This document shows positions 14,940-36,439 of a stretch of DNA of 42,313 bases, one piece after another. Each line of letters starts with the position of its first letter. The stretch's first letter is position 1. The notes beneath the pieces were generated by a model. That model was not told the DNA's origin and made no database searches. It worked only from the letters and a program-made list of their open reading frames with translations. The DNA comes from Barnesiella sp. An22. Its GTDB lineage: Bacteria; Bacteroidota; Bacteroidia; Bacteroidales; Barnesiellaceae. The stretch lies in assembly GCF_002159975.1 (NCBI RefSeq), contig NZ_NFJR01000020.1, positions 1 to 42,313 on the forward strand, given 5' to 3'. The position numbers were made by a program, and so were the translations under genes.

Positions 14940-14941
14940 AG
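14914..14941 (+). repeat. RIT left-end iterons
   Basis: Two copies of ATTATCCAAAG (14914-14924 and 14931-14941) separated by TAAAAG. A third, variant unit ATTATCTAAAG is in the core at 14889-14899. Probable recombinase arm-binding sites. Confidence 0.8.
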
Positions 14942-15063
14942 CAATAACAACTATAAGTTTCCAATAAATTGATTTTCAATATTACTTTTGATAATGTTGT
15001 TTGGATAATATAATGGTAATTTCGCATAGGGTTGGAACAAACCACCCGTTAAAATCAATAAAT

Positions 15064-16308
15064 ATGTCCAACAACAAAAAGAAAAACATTCATGTTCTGA
15101 TACAAGAATGTACAGAACACTTGCGGTTTCTTGGGTATTCGGAAGCCTGCATTACTTTACACCAGAAGAAATGGTCGGAATACCTGTTGCCTTATCTACA
15201 GGAAAAAGACATCGTGTTCTACTCGACTGAAGCCGGAGAATGTTACCTGAAATCAGTTCTTTCGAATTTAACCCCATTCTCCAAGCGGGTACTTACTCGT
15301 AGTGTGCATATCCTTTCCGCTTATTTGGATACAGGTATTATTCCAAAAAGGATAGTACCAATAGAAGAACATCCTTTGCCCGGAGAGATTGGAGAAGCTG
15401 CACATCTTTTTCTGGAAGAGCTGGTAAATAGTCGGCGTAATGATATTACGGTTTTAAAACATCGCCGTAATTTGAGTTATTTTATTGAATTTTTGGAAAC
15501 CAAGTCAAAATCAAAACTTTGCGATATTGGAGAAGATGAAATCGTGACTTTTTTGAGTACGAGTAGAAACGCCAGGGACAGATATTCTTCTATACGGCTG
15601 TTTCTCCGATTCCTGGCAGGTAAAGAATATATTCAGACAGATTTTGAATATGTTCTTTCTCGTAACCGTTATCCCAAACGGGAAAAACTGCCTTCCATAT
15701 ATAGTGCCGAAGAAGTCAAACAAATAGAGTTGTCGGTTGAACAATCAGGTCCGGTAGGGAAACGTGATTATGCAATATTGCTTCTTGCCACACGGCTCGG
15801 TTTACGCGCTTCGGATATTTGCAGATTGGAGTTTGACCATTTGGATTGGGATCACAATGTCATTGCATTCATCCAATACAAAACAAAAAAATCGATAGAG
15901 CTTCCGTTGCTTACTGATGTCGGTGAAGCCATAGTCAATTATCTGCGTTATGGCAGACCGATTTCCGGGCATTCGGAAATATTCTTATCGGCACGTCCAC
16001 CTTATCGTCCAATGTTCCGTTGGGGAATAAACGGTGTAATATCAAGAATTATGAGAGAATCAGGCGTTGATATATCCAAACGTAAGTTCGGTCCTCATGC
16101 TATGCGTCATTCTCTCGCCAGCAGACTGCTTGCCAACGGTGTTTCGCTGCCAGTCATATCTGAATCATTGGGACACGAGAGTTCCTTGAGTACAATGGAA
16201 TATTTAAGGGTAGATTTGTCAAGCCTGATGAAATGTGCCCTTGACGTACCGCTTGTCAATCCCGCTTTTTACGAACAGAAAGGAGGTATCTTTTATGGAA
16301 AAATGTAA
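15064..16308 (+). CDS. RIT tyrosine recombinase A
   Basis: From the ATG at 15064 the protein has 414 codons. The frame extends further upstream, but that extension lies in the element's terminal repeats, so I prefer this start. The N-terminal part (about 1-190) is two SAM-like DNA-binding segments. The catalytic domain carries R248 (LGLRASDICRL), the beta-sheet Lys (KTKKSIELP), H345xxR348 (HAMRHSLA), H371 (LGHESS) and the nucleophile Y380 (MEYLR). All active residues are present, so it should be active. It overlaps the next gene by 14 nt. Confidence 0.93.
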   Translation: MSNNKKKNIHVLIQECTEHLRFLGYSEACITLHQKKWSEYLLPYLQEKDIVFYSTEAGECYLKSVLSNLTPFSKRVLTRSVHILSAYLDTGIIPKRIVPIEEHPLPGEIGEAAHLFLEELVNSRRNDITVLKHRRNLSYFIEFLETKSKSKLCDIGEDEIVTFLSTSRNARDRYSSIRLFLRFLAGKEYIQTDFEYVLSRNRYPKREKLPSIYSAEEVKQIELSVEQSGPVGKRDYAILLLATRLGLRASDICRLEFDHLDWDHNVIAFIQYKTKKSIELPLLTDVGEAIVNYLRYGRPISGHSEIFLSARPPYRPMFRWGINGVISRIMRESGVDISKRKFGPHAMRHSLASRLLANGVSLPVISESLGHESSLSTMEYLRVDLSSLMKCALDVPLVNPAFYEQKGGIFYGKM

Positions 16309-17299
16309 ATTTATGAGCGTATTCGCTCCATATATGCAAAAGTTTGTGGATGCAAAAGAAGCTCTGGGTTTTTCAAGGAAATATTTTGAAAGTGTTTTAG
16401 GGTTACTCGATCGGTTCTTCATCGAAGAAAAGGTACGGACTCCTTTTATCCCAAGTGTACTGATAGACAAATGGGGACATACTTTGATTAATAACAGCTA
16501 TAAAACGATTTGTAGCAAATATTCTATATTGGCACAGTTTGCAAAGTATATGAATAACATAGGTTTTCCTTGTTATGTACCTCGAATTCCAAAGAGCAAA
16601 GCCAATACGTATGCACCATACATCTTCACGCACGAACAAGTGCTTTCCATTTTTACAGTGTGTGATTCTCTTGTGGCCAGCGATCACGGAAATATGGACA
16701 GCCGTCTTTTTTCTATACCTGCCATTTTTCGCCTGCTGTATGGTACAGGGATGCGTGTGAGTGAAGCCACGTCATTGTTGAACCAAGATATAAATCTCGA
16801 GAAAAGAGTAATCACAATAAGGAAAACCAAGAACCAGCGCCAACGCCTGATACCTGTCTGTCCGTCATTGCACCAGATGTTAAGCCAATATGTGGAAGCG
16901 AGGAACAGGCTGCCTTTACCCCATGTAAATGCCATGGAGTCTCCATTTTTTATTTCTCCATCCGGATTGCCTCTGAACCAGAGCAGGGTTTATGCGTGGT
17001 TCAGAATTATATTAAGAAAATGCAGTATTCCGCATTGTGCTAAAAAAGGACCCAGAGTACATGATCTAAGGCATACATTTGCCGTACATTCGTTGATGCG
17101 CCAAGTAAGAAACGGGGCGGATATATATTGTACGCTTCCTATTCTTTCCGTTTTTCTTGGACATAAGAAGCTGTCCGATACGGAAACCTATGTGCGGCTG
17201 ACACAAGAGATGTATCCGGATGTACTGAAACTGGAAAGTTCCATTACAAGTTTTTTATACCCCGCTTTACCCAATAATCCTGTAGCCTATGAAAGATGA
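16295..17299 (+). CDS. RIT tyrosine recombinase B
   Basis: Start at ATG 16295, chosen over the upstream extension because AGGAGG at 16281-16286 is ideally placed; this gives 334 aa. Catalytic residues: R154 (GTGMRVSEATSL), Lys in RKTKNQRQR, H256xxR259 (HDLRHTFAVHS), H290 (LGHKKLSD) and Y299 (TETYVRL). The start lies inside the end of gene A and its stop lies inside gene C (11-nt overlap), so the three are translationally coupled. In RIT elements all three recombinases are thought to act together; the individual roles are unknown. Confidence 0.93.
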   Translation: MEKCKFMSVFAPYMQKFVDAKEALGFSRKYFESVLGLLDRFFIEEKVRTPFIPSVLIDKWGHTLINNSYKTICSKYSILAQFAKYMNNIGFPCYVPRIPKSKANTYAPYIFTHEQVLSIFTVCDSLVASDHGNMDSRLFSIPAIFRLLYGTGMRVSEATSLLNQDINLEKRVITIRKTKNQRQRLIPVCPSLHQMLSQYVEARNRLPLPHVNAMESPFFISPSGLPLNQSRVYAWFRIILRKCSIPHCAKKGPRVHDLRHTFAVHSLMRQVRNGADIYCTLPILSVFLGHKKLSDTETYVRLTQEMYPDVLKLESSITSFLYPALPNNPVAYER

Positions 17300-18314
17300 T
17301 TTTGCAAAGTATCTGACTCGCTTTTTTACAAGTTATCTGTCCGGAGAACGAGGTCTGAGCCATAACACCATAAGGGCATATGGAAATACATTCTTGTCAT
17401 TCATAGATTTTATGGAAAAAACAAGATGCATTAAGGCAGACAGGATATCGCTGGAACATCTGACACGAAACAACGTTTCGGATTTTTTACATTGGACGGA
17501 AGAAAACAAAGGATGCGGTACAGCAACACGCAATCAAAAGCTCTCCGCATTCCATACTTTTTGTAAGTATATGCTGTATACTGACATCTTCCATTTGGAC
17601 CAATGGCAATCCATATTATCTATAAAATCGAAACATTGCGAAAAGCAGTCGGTAAGTTATTTGTCTATTGACGGAATAAGACTATTGTTGTCGTTAATAC
17701 CAGTAAATACGAGAAACGGACTTCGTGATCTTGCCTTGATAGCGTTACTGTATGACAGTGGAGCCAGAGTTCAGGAACTCATAGATTTGACACCGACAGA
17801 CTTGCATTTGGTTAAGCCATATTATGTGTCATTATTTGGCAAGGGACGGAAAAGAAGGCTTGTTCCGCTACAAGAACAGCAAGTGGAATTACTTAAAAAG
17901 TATATGGAAACCGAAGGTCTGTTGAAGCAATCGTTGAACCAACGTCCTTTGTTTGTAAACAACAGAGGGGGAAAACTCACAAATGCGGGGGTAACTTTTA
18001 TTTTGATGAGATACGTGAGGAATGCACATGTTGCAGATCCGAATCTTATACCAGCCAAAATCAGCCCTCATAGCCTACGGCACAGCAAGGCGATGCACTT
18101 GTTGCAAGCCGGAGTAAACTTGATTTATATTCGGGATATACTCGGGCATGTATCTATACAAACTACAGAAATATACGCTCGGGCTGATTCCAAACAGAAA
18201 AGAGAGGCTCTTGAAGCTGCTTATGCAGACATCATTCCTGTCATGGATAAAGTAGAAGGCTCTTGGGAGAAAGATTCAAAATTGAAGCACTGGTTAAAAG
18301 GACTTGGAAAGTAG
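17289..18314 (+). CDS. RIT tyrosine recombinase C
   Basis: A 341-aa recombinase with a XerC/D-like layout: N-terminal SAM-like domain (about 5-95, LSHNTIRAYGNTFLSFIDFM) and catalytic domain with R160 (DSGARVQELIDL), Lys in FGKGRKRRLVPL, H261xxR264 (HSLRHSKAMHLL), H287 (LGHVSIQTT) and Y296 (TEIYARA). All catalytic positions are intact. It overlaps gene B by 11 nt and ends 77 nt before the right-end iterons. A basic C-terminal tail follows the tyrosine. Confidence 0.93.
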   Translation: MKDDFAKYLTRFFTSYLSGERGLSHNTIRAYGNTFLSFIDFMEKTRCIKADRISLEHLTRNNVSDFLHWTEENKGCGTATRNQKLSAFHTFCKYMLYTDIFHLDQWQSILSIKSKHCEKQSVSYLSIDGIRLLLSLIPVNTRNGLRDLALIALLYDSGARVQELIDLTPTDLHLVKPYYVSLFGKGRKRRLVPLQEQQVELLKKYMETEGLLKQSLNQRPLFVNNRGGKLTNAGVTFILMRYVRNAHVADPNLIPAKISPHSLRHSKAMHLLQAGVNLIYIRDILGHVSIQTTEIYARADSKQKREALEAAYADIIPVMDKVEGSWEKDSKLKHWLKGLGK

Positions 18315-18420: not shown

Positions 18421-18448
18421 CGATTATCTAAAGTTGTGATAAGCGTGA
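18421..18448 (+). repeat. RIT right 28-bp core direct repeat
   Basis: Same strand and identical to 14887-14914, although the neighbouring iterons are inverted. Its last bases (GATAAGCGTGA) run straight into the topB reading frame GAT AAG CGT GAG GGG GAA. Confidence 0.85.
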
Positions 18449-20201
18449 GGGGGAACTTATCTTCCGCTGGATATACGCCTTCCTGGAGTGTACGAAACCG
18501 TTCCGCCGCCTGTGGATCTCCTCGCTGACCGACGAGGCCATACGGAAAGGGCTGGAAAACCTGAAAGACGGGACGGAGTACGACAGCCTGTATGCCGCCG
18601 CCGACAGCCGCGCGAAGGCCGACTGGCTGGTGGGCATGAACGCCAGCCGTGCCCTGGCCATCGTCTCCGGCTCGTCCAACAACTCCATCGGACGGGTACA
18701 GACGCCGACGCTTGCCATGATATGCAGCCGCTACAGGGAGAACCGGAACTTCGTCTCCACACCGTACTGGCAGCTGCACGTCACCCTGAAGAACGGGGAT
18801 TCGCACCGCCGCTTCTTCCACACGGTGAACTTCAGTGACCGGCAGGAGGCTGAGACGGCCTACCGCCGTATCTCTTCCGATTCCCGGGCGACGGTCACGA
18901 AGGTGGAACGCAGGAGAACCCTGCAACAGCCGCCGTTGCTCTACGACCTGACGGCACTCCAGAAGGAGTGCAACGTGCATCTCGACCTGTCCGCGGCAAA
19001 GACGCTGGACATCGCCCAGTCGCTCTACGAGAAGAAACTCATTTCCTACCCGAGAACGGGAAGCCGATATATCCCGCACGACGTGATGGTTTGCGTGCCC
19101 GGACTGCTGGAAAGAATTCTGGTCATGCCGGGATTCGCCGCCTGCGCCGGAACCCTCGACCTTGCACGTCTCAACACCCGCAGCGTGGACGACAGGAAAG
19201 TGACGGACCACCATGCCCTCATCACGACCGGCATTGCTCCCGAAGGGCTTTCAGAGGCGGAGACCGCTGTCTATACGCTGATAGCTGGACGTATGCTGGA
19301 GGCGTTCTCGCCCTGCTGCGAGAAGGAAATGCTGCTCATGGAGTGTCGCGTGGAGGGGTTGGACTTCTGCTCGAAGGGTTCTTCCGTGGTCAGCCCGGGA
19401 TGGCGCGGCATCTTTGGCCGGAAAGAGGACCGGGAAGATGACGAGCCGGAAACCGACGAGGGTACGGCTGTGTTTGCCGAAGGGGATACGGTCCCGGTTT
19501 CAGGCCACGGACTGGCCCAGAAGAAGACCATGCCCCGGCCGCTCTATACCGAAGCCACGCTGCTGGCGGCCATGGAGACCTGCGGCAGGGAGATAGCCGA
19601 CGAGCAGGCACGGGAGGCCGTGAAGGAGCTGGGAATCGGAACGCCCGCCACGAGAGCCGCCATCATTACCACCCTGTTCAAGCGCGACTACATCGCCCGA
19701 TCGGGCAAGAGCATCGTCCCCACGGAAAAGGGGCTGCATATCTACGAGGCGGTAAAGGAGATGCTTGTGGCGGATGCCTCCCTGACGGGAAGCTGGGAAA
19801 AGGCCCTGCTGCAGATCGAGCGGCACACGCTCACGACCGAGGCTTTCATGGCTTCCATCACGGACTACACACGCAAGGCCACCCGCGAAATCCTGAACCT
19901 CAGCCTTCCGTCAGCAACCGCCCGCACGTTCACCTGTCCCAAATGCAAGACCGGGCATATCATCGTCAGGGAGAAGATTGCCCGCTGCGACAATAAAGGT
20001 TGTGGACTGACCGTGTACCGCAGGTTCCTAAACAAGCAGCTGACGGACCAGCATCTGGAACAGCTCTTCTCTTCCGGCTCCACACGGCTCATCAAGGGAT
20101 TCAAGGGGAAGAAGGGCGTGGCTTTCGACGCTTCGGTCACCTTTGACGCCGGCTTCACCCTGACACTTTCGTTCCCCAAAAACGGGAAAAAGAAGAGATA
20201 A
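18432..20201 (+). pseudogene. topB: DNA topoisomerase III, 5'-truncated by the RIT element (right copy)
   Basis: In-frame homology starts at DKREGELIFRWIYAFLE (about 18438) and continues to a complete C-terminus. An in-frame TAA at 18429-18431 lies just upstream. The first ATG is at 18630, so any product would lack the entire TOPRIM domain. The active-site tyrosine motif LISYPRTGSRYIP and the C-terminal CPKCKTG...CDNKGCG are kept. The copy is GC-rich and differs at about one residue in three from the left copy, consistent with origin from a different integrative element. The small membrane gene at 20395 follows as in the left arm. Confidence 0.9.
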
Positions 20202-25582: not shown

Positions 25583-25763
25583 TTTTTGGTGATGTTTGTG
25601 TGGGTACATGGATTCTGGACGGAATAACCGTCCGATTTATGAGATAGAATATAGTTCGTCTGTTGCTGGGAAAAGATGTAGGGCTGAGAGATTCTTACTT
25701 ATGTTTTTATTACTAATGTCATAGCTTTAATATTTTATCCATAACTATCTACATGAAAATATT

Positions 25764-25771
25764 TATTTTTG
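25764..25771 (+). promoter_or_regulatory. -7 box TATTTTTG deciding the start of the next gene
   Basis: TATTTTTG matches TAnnTTTG and lies inside the longest reading frame beginning at 25753. Together with AAAGGAAG (25780-25787) in front of ATG 25795 it argues that translation begins at 25795, not 25753. No good -33 box was found. Confidence 0.4.
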
Positions 25772-25794
25772 TGGGATATCAAAAGGAAGTAACT

Positions 25795-26568
25795 ATGTTA
25801 TTACCAACAATGACATATAAAGAAATGTACGATCATCTTAGCAAGGATCTTCAAAAAGTAAAGATAAGAGAGAATTACTTTCTCCCGAAGGCAATAAAAG
25901 AATTCAAGAAGGAGAAGAGATTCCCTGCATGTAGATGGTATGAATACACTGTGCCTGCATCACAAAATAAGTATGTCATATTTTTTTATGCTGAGAGTCG
26001 AGCTTTTATCGAGCGGCCTCAGATTGACAATTTTTCCATAGTCTTTGATAAAAAGAATAATAGATATGTAATTAAGTGTGCAGTGTGTGGGTATAGTCAT
26101 ACTAAAGAAGGCCCATTAATGCCTCTTAGGCAGGTTCAAGTATATACAAGTCATTTCTTTGATAGATATAAGGAGAGGTATTTAAAAGATTTGTCACTTA
26201 ATGCAAATGATGTAGTTTGTAGATATCTCTCAAGAAACAAAAGAGGAATGCCCATTGAAATGAATGATGAGATTAATAGGCATTTAGATCAGTATGGAGT
26301 TGGTGCAAAATATGGTTTTCGAGTTAGAGATGGTTTCTGTTTTGCGATATCTGATTTACAGGTTATAAAAAGTGAAGATGGGGATAGTGAAAAAGATAAG
26401 CCTCAAGCAATGTATGTGGTCTATAAAACATTTATGAATGAATCTGATATGGCAGATGCGCAATTATCAGCCATAAATAAATCTCATTATGAGGCTTGGT
26501 TACAGTACGCTCAAACTATTCAGAGGGAAGCTGTAGATGGAGAAATTACGCTGACTCTTGATGCATAA
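25795..26568 (+). CDS. Unknown cytoplasmic protein of the accessory cargo
   Basis: 257 aa from the ATG at 25795, chosen for its ribosome-binding site. No signal peptide or membrane segment. Visible features: a charged N-terminus (about 1-50, KAIKEFKKEKRF), a Cys pair KCAVCGYSH in the middle, and a conserved-looking YTSHFFDRYKERYLKDL that could hold catalytic His/Arg/Glu. The C-terminus is acidic. I do not recognise the family. It is AT-rich like the nuclease/E2-E1/SecA operon, converges on it, and may be part of the same cargo. A phage-sensing or antitoxin-type role would be a guess. Confidence 0.7.
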   Translation: MLLPTMTYKEMYDHLSKDLQKVKIRENYFLPKAIKEFKKEKRFPACRWYEYTVPASQNKYVIFFYAESRAFIERPQIDNFSIVFDKKNNRYVIKCAVCGYSHTKEGPLMPLRQVQVYTSHFFDRYKERYLKDLSLNANDVVCRYLSRNKRGMPIEMNDEINRHLDQYGVGAKYGFRVRDGFCFAISDLQVIKSEDGDSEKDKPQAMYVVYKTFMNESDMADAQLSAINKSHYEAWLQYAQTIQREAVDGEITLTLDA

Positions 26569-26860: not shown

Positions 26861-29545
26861 CTAATTTTTCACTGCAAAACTACCGTGACATTGCCAATAT
26901 GGCTTGCCGCTTCCACAAGGACAAAGTTCCTCAAGTCCGACTGTATCACAATTAGCATTCGAGAAAGGGAAATAACCATAACTTTTGGAAACATTACTCT
27001 TATTGTCCTCAGCGTCGTTGACAGGCAATGTTACAGTAAGTAAAGTGCGTGTCAACTCTTTTTTTGCAGAAGCAAACATATTTTGATAAATTGTCTCATA
27101 TTTACTCTGGGGTATCAGAGGACTGTTGATTTCGTTGATGAAACCAATCCACAACTTATCGATAACGTTGAGCAAAGTTTGCTTTTCAATTTCTCGGATG
27201 ACGGATGCTCCTCGTGTCGCTACAGCTTCTCTGAAATCGCACTTTATGGAAGATATCTTTTCGTCAGTCATGAGTGGTATTGGGGTAAGTGCTTCAACTC
27301 TCCAAATGTTGTTCAATGCCCTCTCAATTATTAGGAGTGCCTTTGCTGCTATCGTTTTTTTATGGCTTTCATATTCTGATTTAAAATCAATATTTTCCCA
27401 CAAGTCGAAAAGTTTATAGCCAGATTTGATGGCGTCCCTGTCTTGCCGGAGAAGTTGCATTCGCAAATTATACAAAAGCCAACGGAAAGGGTGAATAATA
27501 TTATCTCGTTTAATTGCCTCTGCACGTTCATTCTTATCCTCTTCCTCTTTGTTGTGTTGTGCTAACAAGAATAGCTTGACTGCACGTTCATCTGTTATTT
27601 CCCCACTATCTGTGACATTTTGTTGTTTTAAATCTTCCAATACTTTTTTATCATTTGGAGATAAATATCCTATTATTTCATCTTCGCAAGAGACAAAAAA
27701 TTGTGATGAGCCTGGATTGCCTTGTCGCCCTGAACGTCCAATGAGTTGCTCGTCAATGCGCTTTGAATGCGCTATACCCCAACCAATAACAGCCAAACCG
27801 CCAGTTGTCAGAGCATCGTCACTTGGTTTGATGTCTGTTCCTCGTCCAGCTACGTTGGTCGCCACCGTAATGCAACCAAGTTCTCCCGCACGAGTTATGA
27901 TAGAGGCTTCTTGACCAAGTGTTTTAGCATTCAACAAATGCGGCTTCAATCCATTACTTTCTAAATAAGATTTTACTTTTTCAGATTGCTTGATAGAGTT
28001 CACGCCAACGAGAACAGGCCGTTGCTCCTTATGCAGTCTTACCACTTCTTGCGACATGGCAAAAAGGGCTTGTTCGCTTGTTGTGAATGCTCGTAGAGGG
28101 TAGTCTTTACGAATTACTGGCTTATGAGTTGGGATAACTGCCACTTCGAGACCGTACACATTGTGCCATTCGTCTATTGCGGCAACGGCTGTACCAGTCA
28201 TACCCGACAGTTTGTCATATAAAGAAAGATAATTTTTTACAGTAATGGTTCCACGGATATTATCTATCTCATTTTTAAGTGGAAGATTTTCTTTTGCTAA
28301 GACTGCTTCATGCAAACCATATCCCCATACGTGTGTAGGTTTTAAGCGACCTGTATTTTGGTCGACTATGATAATCTTTTTGTCTGACACGATGTAGTCC
28401 ACATCTTTTTCATACACCGTAAGGGCTGTCAGTAATTGGCATAATACGTTTTGCAATTTCAGTTGTGACAGCCATGAGTTTTTCTCCGCCAATACAAAAC
28501 CTTCTTTTTGAGCTTTTGTAAGAGTAGAATCTCCCTCTATACATTTTATTTTATTGTCGTAAAAGTCATCGTCAAAAATTGTCGAGTCTCCACAATCATT
28601 GGCAAGCCAAGCTTTTCCTTTTTCCGTCAATGTCGCTTTCTTTCGGAGTATGTCTATTGTGTATAGCCCCATCTCTGTTTGCGCCACTAACTTTTTTACA
28701 TTGGGGAGGAATTTTTCATAAGGACTTTTATTTTTCTTTTGAGAGTAATAGACGCCTCCTGATAAAATGTGCGGCGTTTCCTCCTCGTCAATCATTACCG
28801 AATCAGCTTCATCTACGATGGTAAAGCCGAACTTGTCTTGTACGCATTTTGAAACATCTAAGGTAGTGTGATCAAAAAGATAGTCAAAAACAAAGCCGGA
28901 TGTTGTTCCGAATGTAATGTCGCAAGTATAAGCCTCCTTACGTTGTAAACTGTAATGAGCCTTGCCCTCGATGCATCCGACTGAAAGTCCGAGAAAGGCA
29001 TATATAGGACGAGTAATCTCAAAATCTCTCTTTGAAAGATATTCGTTAACAGTCATTACATGCACGCCCTTTCCATTTATTGCATTAAGGACTGCTGGTG
29101 CTATAACTACCAATGTTTTGCCCTCTCCAGTTGCCATCTGTAATATTCGCCCATTGTGAATTTCAATTCCTCCTTGCAACTGTTCATCGTAAGGTATCAT
29201 GTTCCAAGTGAATTTTTCACCAAGTACATTCCAAGAATTCTTATATATGGTTTGGCCATTATTGGTGGTAAATACGAAATCATAGCTGTCATCCCATGAC
29301 TTTTCAGTAGGATTGGCTTCAACGATTATGTATTTGTTTTTAGCAAATCGTCTCATTGTTTCTTTAACTATGGCAAATACATCTACCAGGACATTGTCAA
29401 GAGTAACGCTTTGGTCCACGACACTGGTACGAATGTCTTGAAACTTATTTCTTAATTCGTCATTTGACAATTTGGAAAGCTCATCGTAGGCTTCATTGAT
29501 GGCTTTTATAGTGTCATGTATGTTATTCTGTTCCTTAGATTTCAT
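26861..29545 (-). CDS. SecA-like translocase/helicase ATPase of an E1-E2-linked operon
   Basis: An 894-aa SecA relative. Walker A QMATGEGKTLVV (about 136-147), VNEYLSKRDFE, TFGTTSGFVFDYLFDH, DEAD-box VDEADSVMIDEEETP (DEAD at 245-248), SGMTGTAVAAIDEWHNVYG, second motor motif NVAGRGTDIKPS and QLIGRSGRQGNPGSSQF. It ends with a SEC-C zinc motif CPCGSGKPYWQCHG. Differences from housekeeping SecA: shorter, divergent N-terminus, DEAD instead of the usual DEVD. The 11-nt overlap with the E2-E1 gene and the nuclease gene make it part of a three-gene accessory operon. An ATPase acting on protein or nucleic acid substrates in defence is inferred, not shown. Confidence 0.88.
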   Translation of the reverse strand: MKSKEQNNIHDTIKAINEAYDELSKLSNDELRNKFQDIRTSVVDQSVTLDNVLVDVFAIVKETMRRFAKNKYIIVEANPTEKSWDDSYDFVFTTNNGQTIYKNSWNVLGEKFTWNMIPYDEQLQGGIEIHNGRILQMATGEGKTLVVIAPAVLNAINGKGVHVMTVNEYLSKRDFEITRPIYAFLGLSVGCIEGKAHYSLQRKEAYTCDITFGTTSGFVFDYLFDHTTLDVSKCVQDKFGFTIVDEADSVMIDEEETPHILSGGVYYSQKKNKSPYEKFLPNVKKLVAQTEMGLYTIDILRKKATLTEKGKAWLANDCGDSTIFDDDFYDNKIKCIEGDSTLTKAQKEGFVLAEKNSWLSQLKLQNVLCQLLTALTVYEKDVDYIVSDKKIIIVDQNTGRLKPTHVWGYGLHEAVLAKENLPLKNEIDNIRGTITVKNYLSLYDKLSGMTGTAVAAIDEWHNVYGLEVAVIPTHKPVIRKDYPLRAFTTSEQALFAMSQEVVRLHKEQRPVLVGVNSIKQSEKVKSYLESNGLKPHLLNAKTLGQEASIITRAGELGCITVATNVAGRGTDIKPSDDALTTGGLAVIGWGIAHSKRIDEQLIGRSGRQGNPGSSQFFVSCEDEIIGYLSPNDKKVLEDLKQQNVTDSGEITDERAVKLFLLAQHNKEEEDKNERAEAIKRDNIIHPFRWLLYNLRMQLLRQDRDAIKSGYKLFDLWENIDFKSEYESHKKTIAAKALLIIERALNNIWRVEALTPIPLMTDEKISSIKCDFREAVATRGASVIREIEKQTLLNVIDKLWIGFINEINSPLIPQSKYETIYQNMFASAKKELTRTLLTVTLPVNDAEDNKSNVSKSYGYFPFSNANCDTVGLEELCPCGSGKPYWQCHGSFAVKN

Positions 29546-31916
29546 TATTCAGTGGGTTAAATGATAAAAATTTTTTATCTATATATAATTGGAAATCTAT
29601 TTGTCCGTCACTTCTTACCGTGGCTACAATTGGATTGTTTGTGTCAACTTCTTTATTATTCGCAATTTCAACAATCTGTTTTTTTGCAGCTTCCAAAGGT
29701 TGGTTGTCATGAAAGGAAGCGACGCATACGTTACCGACATAATCAATTATCCCATTGGAAAGCCGATTCATTTTCTCTATAGTTTCGTTTGAACCAGCTT
29801 GGCCTATGGCTGATGTAACGAAAATAGCATTCCTATCTGTATTATATCCACCAAGCAGATAGCCCATATTCCCACTGTGTGTCATTGGAAGTTTCTGCAT
29901 TTTGTTAATGGCACTTTCTGGTATAACCATTTTTATTGGATTTTCTTTAAGTTGGTAGCAATGGAGAGAGTCGGAGATGATATTGTCATCGTCGTAATGC
30001 CATATTGTTGAAGTTATATAGCCACGCTCTTGCATTTGCCTATGGATAGAACGTATACATAGGTTGACAAGCGATTGAACGTCGCAACTTGTTGCCAAAA
30101 ATGTGGGAGAATAGCAGCCTGTGCCCTCCACATAGTAATTTTTCTCATCCTGCTCTATGGAAGCAAGGAAATGTTTTCTTAATTCGAATGGATTTCCATC
30201 ATGGTTAGAAAAGCAAAGTAGATGCGTTGCTTTGTTTGTAATGCACAAACTCAATAGTGCGATATCATTTGCGGCATAGCTGAGGAAATGCAGAAGCTCG
30301 TTACTTGCCGTACAATCTATTATTAAATCATATTCATGCAACGCATCAAGAAATTTTTTCTGAGAGTTGTAGTTGATGTTTCCATAGAAGTTTCCATTGG
30401 CATAGTGGCATACACCAGTGTAATCTGTTTGATACCAATACCCTTTAGGCCTAACATCGCAGAATGGCGAAATGCGTTTAATATGAGCAGCAAGCGCCTC
30501 TGCTTTGGCATTGCCGATGTCCGTGTTGTCGTATATAGATCGACAAATGTTACCTGCTTCTACAATGTCTTCATCCCAAAGTGTTAGTTGTCGTACTCCA
30601 CCTCTGGCTAAGGTTTCAGCTATAGGTGAACCAATCGCGCCAAGTCCTATAATTGCGATTTTCTTGTCGGCTAACGAAGAGTTTAACTCTCCACGACCAA
30701 AATATTCTTTTCTTTCTATTGTATTAGAATGTGAAAGCCATAGCGTGATATCGCTCACCTCTTTTAGATTGCATCGATACCGTTCAAAATCATATTGAAA
30801 ATTAGAGTATTCCCGATTATAAAGATTTGCAGTTGCAAGAAACCATTTTACACCACCATCACAGACTATCCCAATAGCAAAATAATGCCACTTAGAAACG
30901 TAGTAGTTATTTAGTTCCTCAGGGTCAAGTCCATTTTCATCTATAAACTCCTCTATTGGCCTATTCAAGGAGTCTTGTATATTTTTATTGGTTACAACTA
31001 ATTCATTTATCTTTTTTTGTATAGCTTCTTTATGTGTCTTAGGCATAGACATTGTGGATAGCTTATGTGTTAGATCTAGTTGGTCGGATTCAGCCTCCTC
31101 ATCAGTAAGAAAAAGATGTGTGTACCAGCTCTCACCTTCTTTTCGCAAACGATCTAACGACGCATCACTTACTCCTTTGAAACGAAAATCTGGAAGCAAA
31201 GTATTGCAAAGTTTTTCATCCCACTTAAACTCCTCAGCCCATGATGCAAAGCTATTGCTTCGTTCAGGTATATGTGTTACAAGCACGTATGGTAACTTTT
31301 CATTTGTTCCTTCTTTGTCTTTAAAAACAGTGAACTTGTCATTTGGATATTTTACAACATTCAAATAGCCTGAGATCTCCTTGAAATTTTCGCTATTGGT
31401 TGAAAAATCACCTATAAACGTTATTTGGCATTTTTTTGCTAACTCGTTGATCTCATCAGGATTGTATCCCTCGTAGGCATTGAAAATTTGTAATGCAGTT
31501 TGAGTGCTACGATCGTCTATATGACGAGGCAAGCCATCCTTTAGATTATTATGAAACCATCCTCTTAGTCGAGAAAACTCTTCATCGAGTTGTGCTTTAG
31601 GTGTTTCTGCAAAAGCTGAATTCAAGCAGAACCAATTCCCTTTTCGAGGATTACTACTATCAAAGGGTATTAGATGTGGATAACCTGAAAGGCTCCATGT
31701 TACGAACAACAATTTATTGTGCGGAAAAGTGTAAGGGATGCGAACTTCTATTTCTATGTTGTAAAGGGTATCGTTAGGAGCAATCTTCCCTACAAATTCA
31801 TTTTCCTGGTCTTGTTTCTCGAAGTATTCCAACAATGTGAAATCGTCAAGGTTTAAACAATAATTGTTGTAGAAATCCTTGTCCTCGTATTTGAAATTAT
31901 ATATTGATTTAGGCAT
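29535..31916 (-). CDS. E2-E1 (ThiF) fusion with degenerate JAB-like C-terminus
   Basis: A 793-aa protein. E2/UBC-like domain about 1-130: RIPYTFPHNKLLFVTW, GYPHLIPF and candidate catalytic Cys97 in GNWFCLNSAF, the CBASS Cap2-type pattern. Linker domain about 150-410. E1/ThiF domain about 415-630: AIIGLGAIGS (nucleotide loop), LWDEDIVEAGN (D448/D450), CRS with R459, K471, IIDCTASN (D534), and Cys601 in EGTGCYSPTF as candidate thioester Cys. C-terminal JAB-like domain about 664-785: MGYLLGGYNTDRNAIFVTSA, but IDYVGNVCVASFHDNQPLE where HxHP...D is expected. It overlaps nuclease by 8 nt and SecA-like by 11 nt. Predicted to join a protein C-terminus to a target; substrate unknown. Confidence 0.88.
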   Translation of the reverse strand: MPKSIYNFKYEDKDFYNNYCLNLDDFTLLEYFEKQDQENEFVGKIAPNDTLYNIEIEVRIPYTFPHNKLLFVTWSLSGYPHLIPFDSSNPRKGNWFCLNSAFAETPKAQLDEEFSRLRGWFHNNLKDGLPRHIDDRSTQTALQIFNAYEGYNPDEINELAKKCQITFIGDFSTNSENFKEISGYLNVVKYPNDKFTVFKDKEGTNEKLPYVLVTHIPERSNSFASWAEEFKWDEKLCNTLLPDFRFKGVSDASLDRLRKEGESWYTHLFLTDEEAESDQLDLTHKLSTMSMPKTHKEAIQKKINELVVTNKNIQDSLNRPIEEFIDENGLDPEELNNYYVSKWHYFAIGIVCDGGVKWFLATANLYNREYSNFQYDFERYRCNLKEVSDITLWLSHSNTIERKEYFGRGELNSSLADKKIAIIGLGAIGSPIAETLARGGVRQLTLWDEDIVEAGNICRSIYDNTDIGNAKAEALAAHIKRISPFCDVRPKGYWYQTDYTGVCHYANGNFYGNINYNSQKKFLDALHEYDLIIDCTASNELLHFLSYAANDIALLSLCITNKATHLLCFSNHDGNPFELRKHFLASIEQDEKNYYVEGTGCYSPTFLATSCDVQSLVNLCIRSIHRQMQERGYITSTIWHYDDDNIISDSLHCYQLKENPIKMVIPESAINKMQKLPMTHSGNMGYLLGGYNTDRNAIFVTSAIGQAGSNETIEKMNRLSNGIIDYVGNVCVASFHDNQPLEAAKKQIVEIANNKEVDTNNPIVATVRSDGQIDFQLYIDKKFLSFNPLNNEI

Positions 31917-33081
31917 ATCCTCTGCTTGATGGTGTTGTTTTTGGTTTTGATTGAGTGCTTATATACTGTTGATGCTCATATTGCTCGGCTCCCTTACGCC
32001 TTTGGTCGTCTGAATTAGCATTTGAGACTATTGGCGGTTGTGGTGGACTTTCTAGAAATCTTGATTGTATCTGCTCACTCACTTTCCGCTGCGCTTCTTC
32101 TCTATTTGAGATTTTCTTTTCCAATTCTCTCCCTTTGAGATAATCTTTTAAAATAATATGAGGCCCTTCAACTGGCTGAATGAATTTGTCTATGCCAAGC
32201 ATTTTTTCACGCTCATCATTTTGCTCCATGCTTTCGGCTTGCTTTTTTGTCCACATATCTTCTAGAGAAATGTCTGCTTCTGTAGCAAGAGACTGTGGCA
32301 TCGTTATTGTTACATCCATTTTATTCAGTAGTTGGTAAACTCGCTTCAAACAAGATTTCGGGTGTTTATGCACTTGCTTCTCAGAAAAACGTATCACAGT
32401 CCAACCTCTTTCAGTAAAGTAGTGATTGCGCAAATCATCTATCGTTCCGTTTTCTGTTTTATAGTGTATAGGTTTTCGTTCCCATCCGGAATAGGGCTCA
32501 TCTATTTCTATGTCGACGAATATTCCTTTTTGTGTATCTATATAGGCGATATCAGGTTCGAAAGGTTTAGAATAATTTCCTATGAACAATGAGAGGCTAT
32601 CGTAAAAACCATGTAACTTTAAGTCCTTGATTATTTTGCATAACCTTTCCTCGCAAACGCCCCTTTTGCCACTACGACCAAGAACAGGCAACTTTATTTC
32701 GCATCCTCTCTGTGGAACACGGATGATAGGGAATCTAGCATCGACCGAATTGGAAATAGAATATAGAACTTTATAGGTAGCTTCGTAATTCAATTTCAAT
32801 ATTGATGTTAAGAAAGGGACTATTTGTACAGTATAATTTTTGCTCATTTTGGGATGTTGCAAAATTTCCCCATAGTTGTCATTTGCTGGTTGCGATGTGT
32901 TCCCTGATTGGGGGGCCTGTGTTCCTGTTGTAGATTCAAGCTCTATTGTGGGAACACTTGGAGGATCGTCATTGGTTGTCCCGCTAGCATGAGTTCCGTC
33001 ATCAACTTGAGGTGTCTTTTCTTTAGATTTCCCATAGAAAAGACGGTGAAAAAAATTACGAATTAGTTCTATTAGTTTCAT
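31909..33081 (-). CDS. Vsr/DUF559-like PD-(D/E)xK nuclease with disordered tails
   Basis: A 390-aa protein. N-terminal amphipathic stretch, then a low-complexity Ser/Thr/Pro linker (about 20-70). A helical part (80-120) leads to the nuclease core: EERLCKII (143-150), EPDIAYID (175-182), FVDIEIDEPYSG (188-199) and LRNHYFTERGWTVIRFSEKQV (217-237), the order seen in Vsr/DUF559-type endonucleases (active Asp, ExD/E, and the RN..L..RGW.VIRF signature). The charged helix (about 290-345) and a disordered tail ending SSRGYA follow. First gene of the operon. Likely cuts nucleic acid; the tail could be an E1-E2 substrate. Activity is inferred from motif order. Confidence 0.78.
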   Translation of the reverse strand: MKLIELIRNFFHRLFYGKSKEKTPQVDDGTHASGTTNDDPPSVPTIELESTTGTQAPQSGNTSQPANDNYGEILQHPKMSKNYTVQIVPFLTSILKLNYEATYKVLYSISNSVDARFPIIRVPQRGCEIKLPVLGRSGKRGVCEERLCKIIKDLKLHGFYDSLSLFIGNYSKPFEPDIAYIDTQKGIFVDIEIDEPYSGWERKPIHYKTENGTIDDLRNHYFTERGWTVIRFSEKQVHKHPKSCLKRVYQLLNKMDVTITMPQSLATEADISLEDMWTKKQAESMEQNDEREKMLGIDKFIQPVEGPHIILKDYLKGRELEKKISNREEAQRKVSEQIQSRFLESPPQPPIVSNANSDDQRRKGAEQYEHQQYISTQSKPKTTPSSRGYA

Positions 33082-33534
33082 CGTTTTTTTGATTTGCGAG
33101 ATTAAATTTTGTAAATATATGTAAATATATAAAATCTTCTTGATGTAGAAAAATTTATTATTAGAAATTGCAATTATTCAGTTGAACTCAAATTCGATTC
33201 TGACATCTAAGTGAGGTGAATATGGTAACAAATATTGTTATACCTTATGAGTGTTAATGTCATATTCTTCAGGGAACTGGTCGCACCTATAATGCCTGTA
33301 AACAGGCATTATAGGTGCGACCAGTTCTAAGCTAGGTAATGATTTGGTGGCGGAATATTTGCATTATCTAGCTTTTTCCGACTATTTGTATTTGTAAACA
33401 GCTGTTTTACAGATTCCTATTATCTTTATCTCTCTTACTTTGATACTTTTTCTTGCTTTACTAGTCTAATAGATTCAATAAAAGGCTATCAAGAATCTTT
33501 TTAGTTAGACCTGATAAATATCAGGTTAACCTTA
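33082..33534. other. Intergenic region upstream of the nuclease/E2-E1/SecA operon
   Basis: AT-rich sequence, including the operon's presumed promoter; no TAnnTTTG box is evident on the minus strand near 33082-33180. It holds the perfect palindrome at 33274-33327. No gene is seen. Confidence 0.5.
33274..33327. repeat. Perfect 26-bp-arm palindrome with a 2-nt centre
   Basis: The left arm (33274-33299) begins GAACTGGTCGCACC and ends GCCTGT. The right arm (33302-33327) is its exact reverse complement and AA lies between. No T-tract follows on either strand, so it is not a standard terminator. It lies between the defence-like operon and an integrase remnant. Confidence 0.93.
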
Positions 33535-33702
33535 TTATTTCAGCGAAATCTTATTCGCCGTCTCTCGCTTCTTGGAATTGACCAAATCAGCATAGATTTG
33601 AGTAGTGGTGACATTCTTATGCGTCAGCATCTTCGATACTGTGTAAATGTCCGTGCCTAAAGAGATTTGGATGACGGCGTATGAATGACGAAAGCAGTGG
33701 AA
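33535..33702 (-). pseudogene. Tyrosine recombinase, C-terminal remnant
   Basis: About 56 residues at the C-terminal end of a tyrosine integrase: FHCFRHSYAVIQISLGTDIY, TVSKMLTHKNVTTTQIYADL, VNSKKRETANKI. This covers HxxR, the second His (LTHKN) and the Tyr nucleophile (IYADL). Upstream of about 33702 no recombinase-like sequence appears in any frame, so more than 80 percent of the gene is gone. The adjacent plus-strand integrases belong to another element; this fragment marks an older one and probably an edge of the cargo. Confidence 0.85.
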
Positions 33703-33961
33703 CAGAATACAGGAAGCAAGTAGATGAAGGGATGAGAAAGAAAAACGTAATTGGTTGAATATGAGCAAAAGTTCTGTTTTTTGCTGAGATAATGGAAAGC
33801 AAAAATGGACAGGATATTGCAGGTGTTCAGTTACCAGAATGTTAGCTGCCCAGTTACCTGAGCCGAATAGGTAACAGACTGAACAATGAAGAAGCTGTCA
33901 CAGAGGCTGTTATTCACTATATGTCAGCATTTTGCATATCAAAGGACGCTTATAAAATAGG

Positions 33962-33969
33962 TAATTTTG
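33962..33969 (+). promoter_or_regulatory. -7 box TAATTTTG before integrase 1
   Basis: TAATTTTG matches TAnnTTTG and lies 18 nt upstream of ATG 33988. It overlaps the TTG start (33967) of the longest frame, so ATG 33988 is preferred. A TTTG at 33931-33934 is farther than usual for -33. Confidence 0.4.
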
Positions 33970-33987
33970 CCATTAAAAAATAAGCGT

Positions 33988-35217
33988 ATGAAAGTAGAAA
34001 AATTTAAGGTGTTGCTCTACCTGAAAAAGAGCGGTCTTGATAAATTCGGAAAGGCTCCGATAATGGGGCGAATAACGGTGAACAACACGATGGCACAATT
34101 CAGTTGTAAGCTGTCATGTACTCCGGAGTTATGGAATCCAAGAGAAAGCCGACTGAATGGAAAGAGTAAAGAAGCCGTTGATATTAATGCAAAAATTGAC
34201 CGGCTCCTGCTTTCTGTCAATTCTGCATTTGATTCACTTGTAGAACGTAAGATTGATTTTGACGCGACTGCCGTAAAAGAGCTTTTCCAGGGAAGTGTGG
34301 AAACCCAGATGACTCTGTTGAAACGGCTTGATATGCATATCGAGGATATGCGCTCAAGAATCGGTATAGATGTGGCAAAAAGCTCCATGTCAACATACAT
34401 TTACACCCGTAGGTATCTTGGTGAATATATTCAAAAACGATTCAAGACAAGTGATGTCGCTTTTGGTCAGTTGAATGAACACATTCCTTGGGAGTTTCAG
34501 GATTATATTCTGAAGGACAAAGGACTTGCGGTAGATACGGCAAGACATTATCTGGCCATCCTGAAGAAAATCTGCCGGATGGCATTCAAGGAAGGATATG
34601 CGGAAAAGCGTTATTTTGTGAATTTCAAACTGCCCCAAGAGCACCGTAAACCACCACGGGCTTTGAGTCGTGAGGATTTTGAGAAGATCCGTGATGTTGT
34701 AATACCACCGGAAAGAGTCACTCATAACATAGCCAAAGATTTATTCCTTTTCGCCTGTTATACAGGAGTCCCATATGCAGATGCGGTTTCAATTACCCGA
34801 GAGAATATATACAAGGATGATAAGGGCAATTTGTGGTTAAAGTATTTGAGAAAGAAAAATGATTATCAGGCACGCGTCAAGTTGCTGCCGGAGGCTATCG
34901 CTCTAATAGAAAAATATCGTTCGGATGAAAGGGATGAGCTTTTCCCGATGATACACCATCCCAATATGCGACGGCACATGAAAGGTTTACGGGATCTGGC
35001 AGGCATAAGTTGTGACCTGGTCTATCACATGGGAAGACATACCTTCGGAAGTCTGATAACCCTTGAGGCTGGTGTCCCAATTGAAACAATCAGCAAAATG
35101 CTGGGGCATACCAATCTGACAACAACTCAGCTTTATGCAAGGGTAACTCCTAAAAAACTTTTTGAGGATATGGACAAATTCATCGAAGCAACGAGTGATA
35201 TGAAACTGGTATTATAA
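33988..35217 (+). CDS. Site-specific tyrosine integrase 1 of a tandem pair
   Basis: 409 aa from ATG 33988. Arm-binding domain (about 1-85, VLLYLKKSGLDKFGKAPIMG), SAM-like core-binding domain (about 110-205), catalytic domain (about 220-400). HMGRHTFGSL supplies HxxR, MLGHTNLTTTQLYARV supplies the second His and nucleophile Tyr, and LRKKN the Lys region. The first catalytic Arg is not at its usual place (YTGVPYADAVSI), as in IntDOT, where another residue takes that position. The second integrase follows by 19 nt, so the two are co-transcribed. Integrates a Bacteroidales element; which one is not clear. Confidence 0.92.
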   Translation: MKVEKFKVLLYLKKSGLDKFGKAPIMGRITVNNTMAQFSCKLSCTPELWNPRESRLNGKSKEAVDINAKIDRLLLSVNSAFDSLVERKIDFDATAVKELFQGSVETQMTLLKRLDMHIEDMRSRIGIDVAKSSMSTYIYTRRYLGEYIQKRFKTSDVAFGQLNEHIPWEFQDYILKDKGLAVDTARHYLAILKKICRMAFKEGYAEKRYFVNFKLPQEHRKPPRALSREDFEKIRDVVIPPERVTHNIAKDLFLFACYTGVPYADAVSITRENIYKDDKGNLWLKYLRKKNDYQARVKLLPEAIALIEKYRSDERDELFPMIHHPNMRRHMKGLRDLAGISCDLVYHMGRHTFGSLITLEAGVPIETISKMLGHTNLTTTQLYARVTPKKLFEDMDKFIEATSDMKLVL

Positions 35218-35236
35218 AATCAAAAAAGAAAGAATC

Positions 35237-36439
35237 ATGAGAAGTACATATAAGCAACTGTATTATATAAACCGCGGTAAAGTCAAATCTGACGGGACCA
35301 CATCAATCATGTGTCGTATTACAATAGACGGGAAGGCTGTTGCATTATCGACCGGGTTATATTGCCAGCCGGAAGAGTGGAACAGCAAGAAAGGAGAAGT
35401 CAAAAACAACAGACTGAATGGAATGCTTTGTGAATATAAGAAACGCGTAGATGAAACTTATGCTGAACTGTTGAAAGTGAACGGTGTTATCAGTGCTGAA
35501 CTTTTGAAAACAGCCATGACTGGGGCTGTCGGTATCCCGAAGTATATATTACAAGCAGGAGAGGTGGAACGGGAAAATCTAAAAATCCGTTCCATTCAAA
35601 TAGATTCAACTTCTAGTTACAGGCAATCAAAAATGTATCACTACTATCTGGGTGAATACATCCGTTCTCTGGGCAAGGAGGACATGCTTTTTACAGATAT
35701 AACCGAAGAGTTTGGGGTCAATTATATTTTATATCTGAAAACAAATTACCCTCATAAGCCATCATACCGGAACCATTGTCTTTGTTGGCTGAAACGTTTG
35801 GTCTATCTAGCCGTAGATAACGGAATCTTGAGGTATAATCCTTTGGATGATATAAAATATGAAAAGAAGGCACCCACAAAGCTCATGTATATAAGCAAGA
35901 AACAACTTCAGGAGATAATGAGCAGCCCTAAGCCTGATCCATTACAAGAACTGGCAAGAAGAACCTTTATATTTTCATGTTTTTGCGGTTTAGCTTATGT
36001 TGATGTACGCAATCTTTATCCGCATCATATTGGTACAACTGCAGAAGGGCGGAAATATATCAGAACTTATCGTAAGAAAACAAGCGTTGAGTCGTTTATT
36101 CCGTTGCATCCGATAGCAGAGCAGATAATATCCTTGTATAATACGACAGATGACAGTAAACCCATTTTCCCGTTACCAATACGTGATATGATTTGGTTTG
36201 AAATACATGAGTTGGGATTTTCCCATCAGTTCAAACATAACCTGTCATATCATCAAAGTCGCCACACTTTTGGTACCCTGATGGTCTCTGCAGGGGTTCC
36301 TATGGAAAGCATATCCAAAATGATGGGACATACAAATATCAGAACCACACAAGGATACGCAAAAGTTACTGATGATAAGATTTCAGAAGATATGGATAAA
36401 CTAATGGAGAAAAAATATATAGATGACTATACTAAATAA
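35237..36439 (+). CDS. Site-specific tyrosine integrase 2 of a tandem pair
   Basis: A 400-aa recombinase with the same three-domain layout: arm-binding part (about 1-90), core-binding part (about 110-210) and catalytic part. HQSRHTFGTLMVSAG gives HxxR, MMGHTNIRTTQGYAKV the second His and Tyr. The first Arg is again absent (CFCGLAYVDVRNL), the IntDOT-type substitution. It starts 19 nt after integrase 1. Tandem integrase pairs of this kind occur in Bacteroidales elements and in invertible DNA systems. No obvious short invertible segment is seen next to it. Confidence 0.92.
   Translation: MRSTYKQLYYINRGKVKSDGTTSIMCRITIDGKAVALSTGLYCQPEEWNSKKGEVKNNRLNGMLCEYKKRVDETYAELLKVNGVISAELLKTAMTGAVGIPKYILQAGEVERENLKIRSIQIDSTSSYRQSKMYHYYLGEYIRSLGKEDMLFTDITEEFGVNYILYLKTNYPHKPSYRNHCLCWLKRLVYLAVDNGILRYNPLDDIKYEKKAPTKLMYISKKQLQEIMSSPKPDPLQELARRTFIFSCFCGLAYVDVRNLYPHHIGTTAEGRKYIRTYRKKTSVESFIPLHPIAEQIISLYNTTDDSKPIFPLPIRDMIWFEIHELGFSHQFKHNLSYHQSRHTFGTLMVSAGVPMESISKMMGHTNIRTTQGYAKVTDDKISEDMDKLMEKKYIDDYTK

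What the first reader, a model, noticed from the sequence alone, without database searches (positions are those of the whole stretch)
26861..33081. Three-gene operon: Vsr-like nuclease, E2-E1-JAB-like protein, SecA-like ATPase
Seen: three minus-strand genes overlapping by 8 and 11 nt, with lower GC than the surroundings, flanked by an integrase remnant and a perfect palindrome. Known: E2-E1 fusions (Cap2) prime CD-NTases in type II CBASS; Bil and Bub systems use separate E1, E2, Ubl and JAB proteins. None of CD-NTase, Ubl or separate JAB is encoded here; instead there is a nuclease and a SecA-type motor with a SEC-C zinc motif. Inference: an antiphage or anti-plasmid system in which ubiquitin-like conjugation controls a nuclease or feeds a motor. 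I cannot place this architecture in a described class.
Basis: partly seen in the sequence, partly recalled or inferred. Interest (0 to 1): 0.92.

Follow-up and report, generated by a model that had tools for sequence, protein, structure and literature searches.

The report
Nuclease, ubiquitin-type ligase, SecA-derived motor
A mobile element in a gut-type bacterium carries three genes that appear to use ubiquitin-like chemistry to attach a DNA-cutting enzyme to other proteins, next to a motor derived from the protein-export machine; it looks like a variant of bacterial anti-virus immunity that fits no family tested here.

Summary
Three overlapping minus-strand genes (26861-33081) encode a 390-aa DUF559-type nuclease, a 793-aa E2-E1-JAB protein and an 894-aa SecA-like ATPase, on an integrase/relaxase element.

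Two relatives (L050, L112) keep the SecA-like + E2-E1-JAB pair, but the nuclease is replaced by a PLD nuclease with a probable Hsp70-type peptide-binding domain. L051 has a PLD nuclease + E2-E1-JAB without SecA-like gene.

Mechanistic evidence:
(1) The nuclease has a tail absent from five solo homologues and ends -RGYA; L051's ends -TSYA. ORFs upstream of Cap2-type genes end -F[G/A] in 22 of 24 loci; 0 of 224 other ORFs end aromatic-[G/A].
(2) The three SecA-likes form a clade, keep the ATPase motifs examined, and lack the two-helix-finger tip present in 9 of 9 controls.
(3) JAB metal-site residues are lost in all three SecA-linked proteins.

Best reading: the E2-E1 conjugates the nuclease by its C-terminus, as Cap2 does cGAS in CBASS, beside a repurposed SecA motor. 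Against generality: L050/L112 nucleases end in Glu. By tested features it is not CBASS, 6A-MBL or Bil. No experiment was possible; only three SecA-type loci were found.

The parts
31909..33081 (-). Nuclease, 390 aa: DUF559/REase-type core (about residues 120-295; E144, D177, D190-I-E192) and a low-complexity C-terminal extension of about 95 residues ending -SSRGYA
   Evidence: DUF559 3e-4; site residues invariant in window + 5 solo cyanobacterial homologues, which lack the extension
29535..31916 (-). E2-E1-JAB (Cap2-like) protein, 793 aa: E2 Cys97, E1 Cys601 conserved; C-terminal JAB domain without the metal-site residues
26861..29545 (-). SecA-like ATPase, 894 aa: Walker A, DEAD, GRGTD and GRSGRQG stretches and SEC-C motif kept, tip of the two-helix finger deleted
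33274..33327 (.). Perfect palindrome (26-nt arms, 2-nt centre) 193 bp upstream of the nuclease start; possible operator or recombination relic
33538..33798 (-). Remnant of an integrase C-terminus
   Evidence: tblastn 1e-9 to the integrases at 33967-36439
33967..36439 (+). Two tandem tyrosine recombinases (416 and 400 aa) of the carrying element; context, not part of the mechanism

Best explanation
A mobile-element-borne, probably anti-phage or anti-plasmid cassette. The Cap2-like E2-E1 enzyme activates the C-terminal carboxylate of its operon partner, the nuclease (tail -RGYA), passes it from E1 to E2 as a thioester and attaches the nuclease to other proteins, as Cap2 attaches cGAS in type II CBASS; attachment primes or localises the nuclease. 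The JAB domain is a predicted catalytically dead scaffold, so no active deconjugase is encoded in the operon. The SecA-derived ATPase is a polypeptide motor or sensor no longer able to work through SecY, because its finger tip is lost. In two sister systems the nuclease carries a probable Hsp70-type peptide-binding domain, which suggests unfolded or nascent foreign protein as the trigger. Shown by sequence: gene set, motifs, tails, SecA clade and deletion, JAB motif loss, recurrence. Inferred: conjugation, trigger, defence.
For: Closest solved structures by sequence and by fold are E. cloacae Cap2, two of them bound to the CdnD C-terminus; both catalytic cysteines are invariant in 12 of 12 aligned proteins. 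The upstream ORFs of Cap2-type genes end F-[G/A] in 22 of 24 loci; 9 of these 24, the nine tested, are oligonucleotide cyclases by PADLOC (a tenth, L100, too). 0 of 224 other ORFs end aromatic-[G/A] and 16 of 224 end G/A. The window nuclease ends R-G-Y-A and the L051 nuclease, of a different fold, T-S-Y-A. The nuclease extension is missing in 5 of 5 solo homologues. Jenson et al. (passages): the cGAS C-terminal Gly/Ala is conserved only with full-length Cap2 + Cap3 and is needed for conjugation. SecA-like clade support 1.0 and finger-tip deletion in 3 of 3 against 0 of 9 controls. Foldseek: 47 of 50 listed matches of the L050 nuclease model are Hsp70-type by title.
Against: Nucleases of L050 and L112 end -VKYE and -VRYE, not G/A, so 2 of 4 nuclease partners break the rule. 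No conjugate has been seen. The Gly-to-Ala change weakens cGAS conjugation. Only 3 loci with the SecA-like gene were found. The Hsp70 assignment rests on a poor model (mean pLDDT 43), with marginal or negative sequence tests, and the window's own nuclease has no such domain. The window nuclease family has not been found beside any other E2-E1 gene (0 of 49 loci). One of the five solo homologues also ends in Gly, though not aromatic-Gly.
Confidence: 0.45

Rival explanations
1. The E2-E1 protein conjugates something other than the nuclease (a host or phage protein, or the SecA-like protein), and the nuclease is a downstream effector released or directed by that modification.
For: The L050 and L112 nucleases end in Glu, and there E2-E1-JAB is convergent to, not co-directional with, the nuclease and SecA-like genes.
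Against: No other protein of the cassette ends in G/A: the window SecA-like protein ends -FAVKN, L050's -KRRRR, L112's -RRRRI. The -RGYA and -TSYA tails would be unexplained.
Confidence: 0.25
2. A restriction-like system: the SecA-like protein acts as a nucleic-acid motor of the DEAD superfamily together with the nuclease, and E2-E1-JAB only tunes it.
For: Nuclease plus helicase-superfamily ATPase is a common defence pairing (recalled). DEAD and Helicase_C profiles match the SecA-like protein.
Against: The protein keeps SecA-specific domains (cross-linking domain 2e-17, P-loop_SecA 7e-45, SEC-C) and branches next to Bacteroidota SecA. No methylase or DNA-recognition gene was found among the operon and flanking proteins scanned.
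Confidence: 0.17
3. An export system: the SecA-like protein secretes the nuclease as a toxin.
For: SecA homology over nearly the full length.
Against: Finger tip lost in 3 of 3. No SecY gene among the 17 window proteins scanned. The E2-E1 protein and the CD-NTase-like tail are unexplained.
Confidence: 0.05

Closest known systems
Type II CBASS (CD-NTase, Cap2, Cap3, effector)
   Same: Cap2-like E2-E1 with both cysteines; partner protein with flexible tail ending aromatic-Gly/Ala; mobile-element setting
   Different: No cyclase, no separate active Cap3, no nucleotide-sensing effector; nuclease in the cyclase's place; SecA-derived motor added
Type 6a operons (Iyer et al. 2006) / NCBIfam 6A-MBL system
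   Same: Triple-module E2-E1-JAB protein beside one enzyme gene; control locus L098 (Fibrella) has the MBL enzyme ending in Gly
   Different: Nuclease in place of the MBL enzyme; JAB site lost; SecA-like gene; 105.6 bits against a cut-off of 320
L051-type pair (PLD nuclease + E2-E1-JAB, Saprospiraceae MAG; found here)
   Same: Nuclease with -TSYA tail directly upstream of E2-E1-JAB
   Different: JAB motif intact; no SecA-like gene on its 14-kb contig and only a 1,115-aa SecA frame in that genome
SecA / SecA2 preprotein translocases
   Same: ATPase core, cross-linking domain, SEC-C motif; 35-36% identity to the window genome's own SecA
   Different: Two-helix-finger tip deleted; separate clade; below all eight SecA/SecA2 model cut-offs matched
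Bil and Bub ubiquitin-like systems (recalled; papers not held)
   Same: Bacterial E1/E2/JAB chemistry in defence
   Different: They use separate E1, E2, JAB and ubiquitin-like genes; here one fused protein and no ubiquitin-like gene

Membership tests
Type II CBASS | CD-NTase in the operon | tested here: not met
   Window operon has 3 genes, none with a cyclase match in Pfam, PADLOC or NCBIfam; the same PADLOC library finds cyclases in 10 of 10 control proteins
Type II CBASS | Cap2 with catalytic E2 and E1 cysteines | tested here: met
   C97 and C601 invariant in 12 of 12 rows; Cap2 best in PDB by sequence and fold
Type II CBASS | Active JAB isopeptidase (Cap3) | tested here: not met
   JAB fused and lacking the metal-site residues; no JAB match at E <= 0.1 in the three operon proteins
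6A-MBL / type 6a | MBL-fold enzyme beside the triple-module protein | tested here: not met
   No MBL match in the operon; control L098 enzyme matches NF058524 at 388 bits
6A-MBL / type 6a | E2-E1-JAB in one chain, at curated score | tested here: not met
   Domain order is met, but 105.6 of 320 bits on NF058523; control L098 540 bits
SecA/SecA2 preprotein translocase | Complete SecA including two-helix finger | tested here: not met
   14-column deletion at the finger tip in 3 of 3, filled in 9 of 9 controls; below cut-offs
SecA/SecA2 preprotein translocase | ATPase and translocation with SecYEG | not testable with these tools
   Needs biochemistry
Bil / Bub | Separate ubiquitin-like protein, E1, E2 and JAB genes | tested here: not met
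   One fused E2-E1-JAB chain and only two other genes in the operon; definition of Bil/Bub recalled
Anti-phage defence system | Protection against phage in a challenge assay | not testable with these tools
   Inference from Cap2 homology and mobile-element context only

The most novel reading that the evidence does not exclude
A separate class of bacterial immunity that senses unfolded or nascent foreign polypeptide through repurposed protein-handling machines (a SecA motor cut off from SecY, and in sister systems an Hsp70-type peptide-binding domain on the nuclease) and answers by ubiquitin-like attachment of a nuclease to its targets.
Probability: 0.25. Interest if true: 0.93.

Novelty: new variant of a known kind. 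Interest (0 to 1): 0.78.

Why it matters
If right, conjugation by Cap2-type enzymes is not a peculiarity of cyclic-nucleotide synthases but a general way of attaching defence enzymes (cyclases, MBL enzymes, nucleases, perhaps DUF1508/YegP proteins) to targets, readable from a short C-terminal signature. It would also be a case of the universal SecA motor recruited away from secretion. Both claims are directly testable: remove one C-terminal residue, or mutate two cysteines or one lysine.

Tried and rejected
Phage or viral origin: no E2-E1-JAB match in the phage collection. Seven scans of viral contigs with single proteins and alignments: six gave no confirmed relative; one search gave 3 weak matches that I did not examine.

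CBASS as the explanation: the eight other class genomes with a match at E <= 1e-14 were all fetched. None shows the SecA-like protein or the window nuclease at E <= 0.01, and the upstream ORF is a cyclase in 8 of 8. Over the 49 loci only L050 has a SecA-like hit and none has the window's nuclease.

DUF559 homologues on cyanobacterial plasmids as operon relatives: in the 5 loci read, no E2-E1 or SecA gene is annotated nearby.

Palindrome as a repeated or invertible site: no other copy in window or genome.

Hsp70 domain by sequence alone: not significant; in local hhalign 1 of 120 column shuffles scored higher than the real pair.

Literature (listings only unless said): searches listed nothing whose title or abstract describes an E2-E1 plus SecA system; '6A-MBL' is in no held paper; some searches gave mainly CBASS papers. 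The Ledvina, Hor and Chambers papers are not held, so absence from print is not established.
Full report
OBSERVATION. The three minus-strand ORFs exist exactly as described: 390 aa (33081-31909), 793 aa (31916-29535) and 894 aa (29545-26861), overlapping by 8 and 11 nt. GC in the bins 27-33 kb is 0.364-0.408 against 0.480-0.521 for 20-25 kb, but the low GC runs from about 25 to 37 kb, over the integrases too. Upstream lie a perfect 54-nt palindrome (33274-33327) without other copy in the 3.35-Mb genome and a minus-strand integrase C-terminal remnant. Then follow two tandem tyrosine recombinases (33967-36439), an HTH_17 gene, DUF3408, a relaxase and another integrase. The host is probably of the order Bacteroidales: genome G087, same order, has a contig of 91,847 bases, the length of the named Bacteroidales MAG contig of L053, with the same E2-E1 ORF. 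This is inference.

THE E2-E1-JAB PROTEIN. ThiF/E1 is found at 5e-21, and PADLOC's E1-E2 model PDLC00827 is matched to its last position. The best solved structures by sequence and by fold are Enterobacter cloacae Cap2, two of these entries bound to the C-terminus of the cyclase CdnD02. The AlphaFold model is moderate (12-row alignment, mean pLDDT 60.5; residues 126-343 below 50; the last 130 residues mostly 70-90). C97 (E2) and C601 (E1) are invariant in 12 of 12 rows. The C-terminal domain aligns with that of L051, which Pfam calls Prok-JAB (8e-13). L051 has a WHSHP...TPD stretch there, whereas window, L050 and L112 read NVCVASFHDN, DYTYSTEKAG and DYAYSDYEND. So the JAB of the three SecA-linked proteins is predicted to be inactive (JAMM motif recalled).

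THE SecA-LIKE PROTEIN. It matches SecA along its length but lies below the cut-offs of all eight SecA/SecA2 models it hits. The genome has a separate 1,111-aa SecA. In a FastTree of 12 sequences (3 SecA-likes and 9 controls from six bacterial lineages, a small sample) the three SecA-likes form one clade (1.0), next to Bacteroidota SecA (0.809). The four motif stretches examined (Walker A, DEAD, GRGTD, GRSGRQG) are kept. A 14-column stretch at the tip of the two-helix finger is filled in 9 of 9 controls and deleted in 3 of 3 SecA-likes. Since that element works inside SecY (recalled), export is unlikely, while polypeptide handling (cross-linking domain, SEC-C) may remain.

THE NUCLEASE. The core (about 120-295) is a weak DUF559 hit (3e-4). 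Similar stretches are found in 40 plasmid records, none covering 80% of the query; the 20 listed rows are 27-34% identical and all of cyanobacterial genera (genus assignment partly recalled). Between the window and 5 of these, E144, D177, D190-I-E192 and D194-E195-P-Y are invariant, as in a PD-(D/E)XK-type site (assignment recalled). The homologues end near the end of the domain; the window protein continues for about 95 residues to -SSRGYA. None of the five ends aromatic-G/A; one ends in K-G.

THE TAIL. In 26 loci with an E2-E1 ORF of 450 aa or more I took the upstream same-strand ORF. L050 had none and L051's is its nuclease. Of the other 24, 22 end F-G or F-A; the misses are L059 (a 225-aa ORF was picked) and L031 (haloarchaeal, -AESDS). 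L042/L053 are the same MAG and L057/L058 share a tail, so the rows are not all independent. I checked ten such partner proteins, nine of them among the 24, against PADLOC: ten of ten are oligonucleotide cyclases; against NCBIfam they hit CBASS cyclase models but below cut-off. Among 224 other ORFs of 150 aa or more in 21 of these loci plus the window, 16 end in G/A and none in aromatic-G/A (ORFs are mechanical, and partners were removed by their six-letter tails). The window nuclease ends R-G-Y-A and the L051 PLD nuclease P-P-T-S-Y-A, like the cyclase tails P-P-V-T-R-F-G and P-G-R-F-A. Jenson et al. (passages read; PMC10097602) found the last residue of 1,583 cGAS from operons with full-length Cap2 and Cap3 conserved as Gly or Ala, without conservation in the other architectures. 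Deleting it abolished conjugation and phenocopied loss of Cap2; changing Gly to Ala weakened conjugation without abolishing it. Against this reading, the nucleases of L050 and L112 end -V-K-Y-E and -V-R-Y-E: 2 of 4 nuclease partners end in Ala, 2 of 4 in Glu.

RECURRENCE. A class-wide search gave a match at E <= 1e-14 in 9 of 395 genomes, one of them the window's own. The other eight are CBASS loci. A pattern scan of genome contigs gave 37 loci. One, L050 (Prevotellaceae MAG), has E2-E1-JAB + SecA-like + PLD nuclease; L051 (Saprospiraceae MAG) has PLD nuclease + E2-E1-JAB. Profile searches gave 3 of 399 genomes (family of L050's genome; full-length: L050's own and G601), 8 of 395 (class of L051's genome; full-length: its own), 1 of 61, 1 of 150 and 1 of 374 (each the starting genome itself). 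These sets overlap. G601 (L112) again has PLD nuclease, SecA-like and E2-E1-JAB. As in L050, the last two genes are convergent with overlapping stop codons (ORF limits), beside a relaxase and ORFs that look like ParA and Tra genes (by eye). The cassette is thus rare in these collections, but the pair recurs with changed orientation and a swapped nuclease.

PLD NUCLEASES WITH A PEPTIDE-BINDING DOMAIN. The L050 and L112 nucleases are PLDc_2 (1e-25) plus a C-terminal domain of about 130 residues that by eye resembled the Hsp70 substrate-binding beta domain. Pfam and PDB sequence searches did not find it, nor did a two-row profile hit DnaK in three genomes. hhalign in global mode laid all 130 columns on DnaK 382-507 with probability 0.3% and E 0.1. 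In local mode it aligned 29 columns at DnaK 467-495, score 20.8; 1 of 120 column shuffles scored higher. A single-sequence AlphaFold model was poor (mean 43; C-terminal blocks mostly 46-70). Yet in Foldseek 47 of the 50 listed rows name an Hsp70-type protein (the other 3 are chains of ciliary microtubule entries), best E 1.7e-6, and 3dqg_C 0.57 TM by target length. I take the assignment as probable, not proven.

MECHANISM. Most likely the E2-E1 enzyme conjugates the nuclease by its C-terminus with Cap2 chemistry. Without an active JAB in the operon, conjugates would not be reversed by it. The SecA-like motor and, in sister systems, the Hsp70-type domain suggest that polypeptides, perhaps nascent or unfolded phage proteins, are the ligand. 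Shown here: motifs, tails, deletions, co-occurrence. Inferred: conjugation, trigger, outcome.

COMPARISON. It is not type II CBASS (no cyclase, no active Cap3), not 6A-MBL (no MBL enzyme; 105.6 of 320 bits; control L098 540 and 388 bits), and not Bil/Bub as recalled (no separate genes). Type 6a operons, a triple-module E2-E1-JAB protein beside a metallo-beta-lactamase, were described by Iyer et al. 2006 (passages read; PMC1779556; the word SecA does not occur in its main text). The cassette works like CBASS in the predicted conjugation step but has a nuclease as the predicted modifier and a SecA-derived motor. Hence: new variant of a known kind.

Noticed in passing
L050:13101-14117 (-) and L112:6297-7274 (+): PLD-family nucleases with a C-terminal domain that Foldseek matches almost only to Hsp70 substrate-binding domains.
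   Followed up: partly
L097:6662-8480 (Spirosoma sp. KNUC1025 plasmid): A 148-aa DUF1508/YegP-type protein with a Gly-rich tail ending -GGGRFA sits just upstream of a 451-aa ThiF/E2-E1-like gene: a possible further conjugated partner.
   Followed up: partly
L098:5741-10495 (Fibrella sp. plasmid): 6A-MBL enzyme (annotated CobQ) with a Gly/Ala-rich tail ending -VTQG, next to cap2_3 and a patatin-like gene.
   Followed up: partly
window 33274-33327: Perfect 54-nt palindrome upstream of the operon with no other copy in the genome; role unknown.
   Followed up: partly
window 13131-14975 (-) and 18432-20195 (+): Two topoisomerase genes in opposite orientation flank three tandem integrases (14995-18308).
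   Followed up: no
L050:14477-18232 (+): 1,252-aa protein with a Schlafen AlbA_2 domain next to the cassette.
   Followed up: no
L031:4821-9534 (Haloplanus plasmid): Haloarchaeal 778-aa ThiF protein beside a SAVED gene; its upstream partner ends -HQFAESDS, i.e. FA followed by four residues, an exception to the tail rule.
   Followed up: no
window 25753-26568 (+): 271-aa protein downstream of an HTH_17 gene, no family match above cut-off.
   Followed up: no
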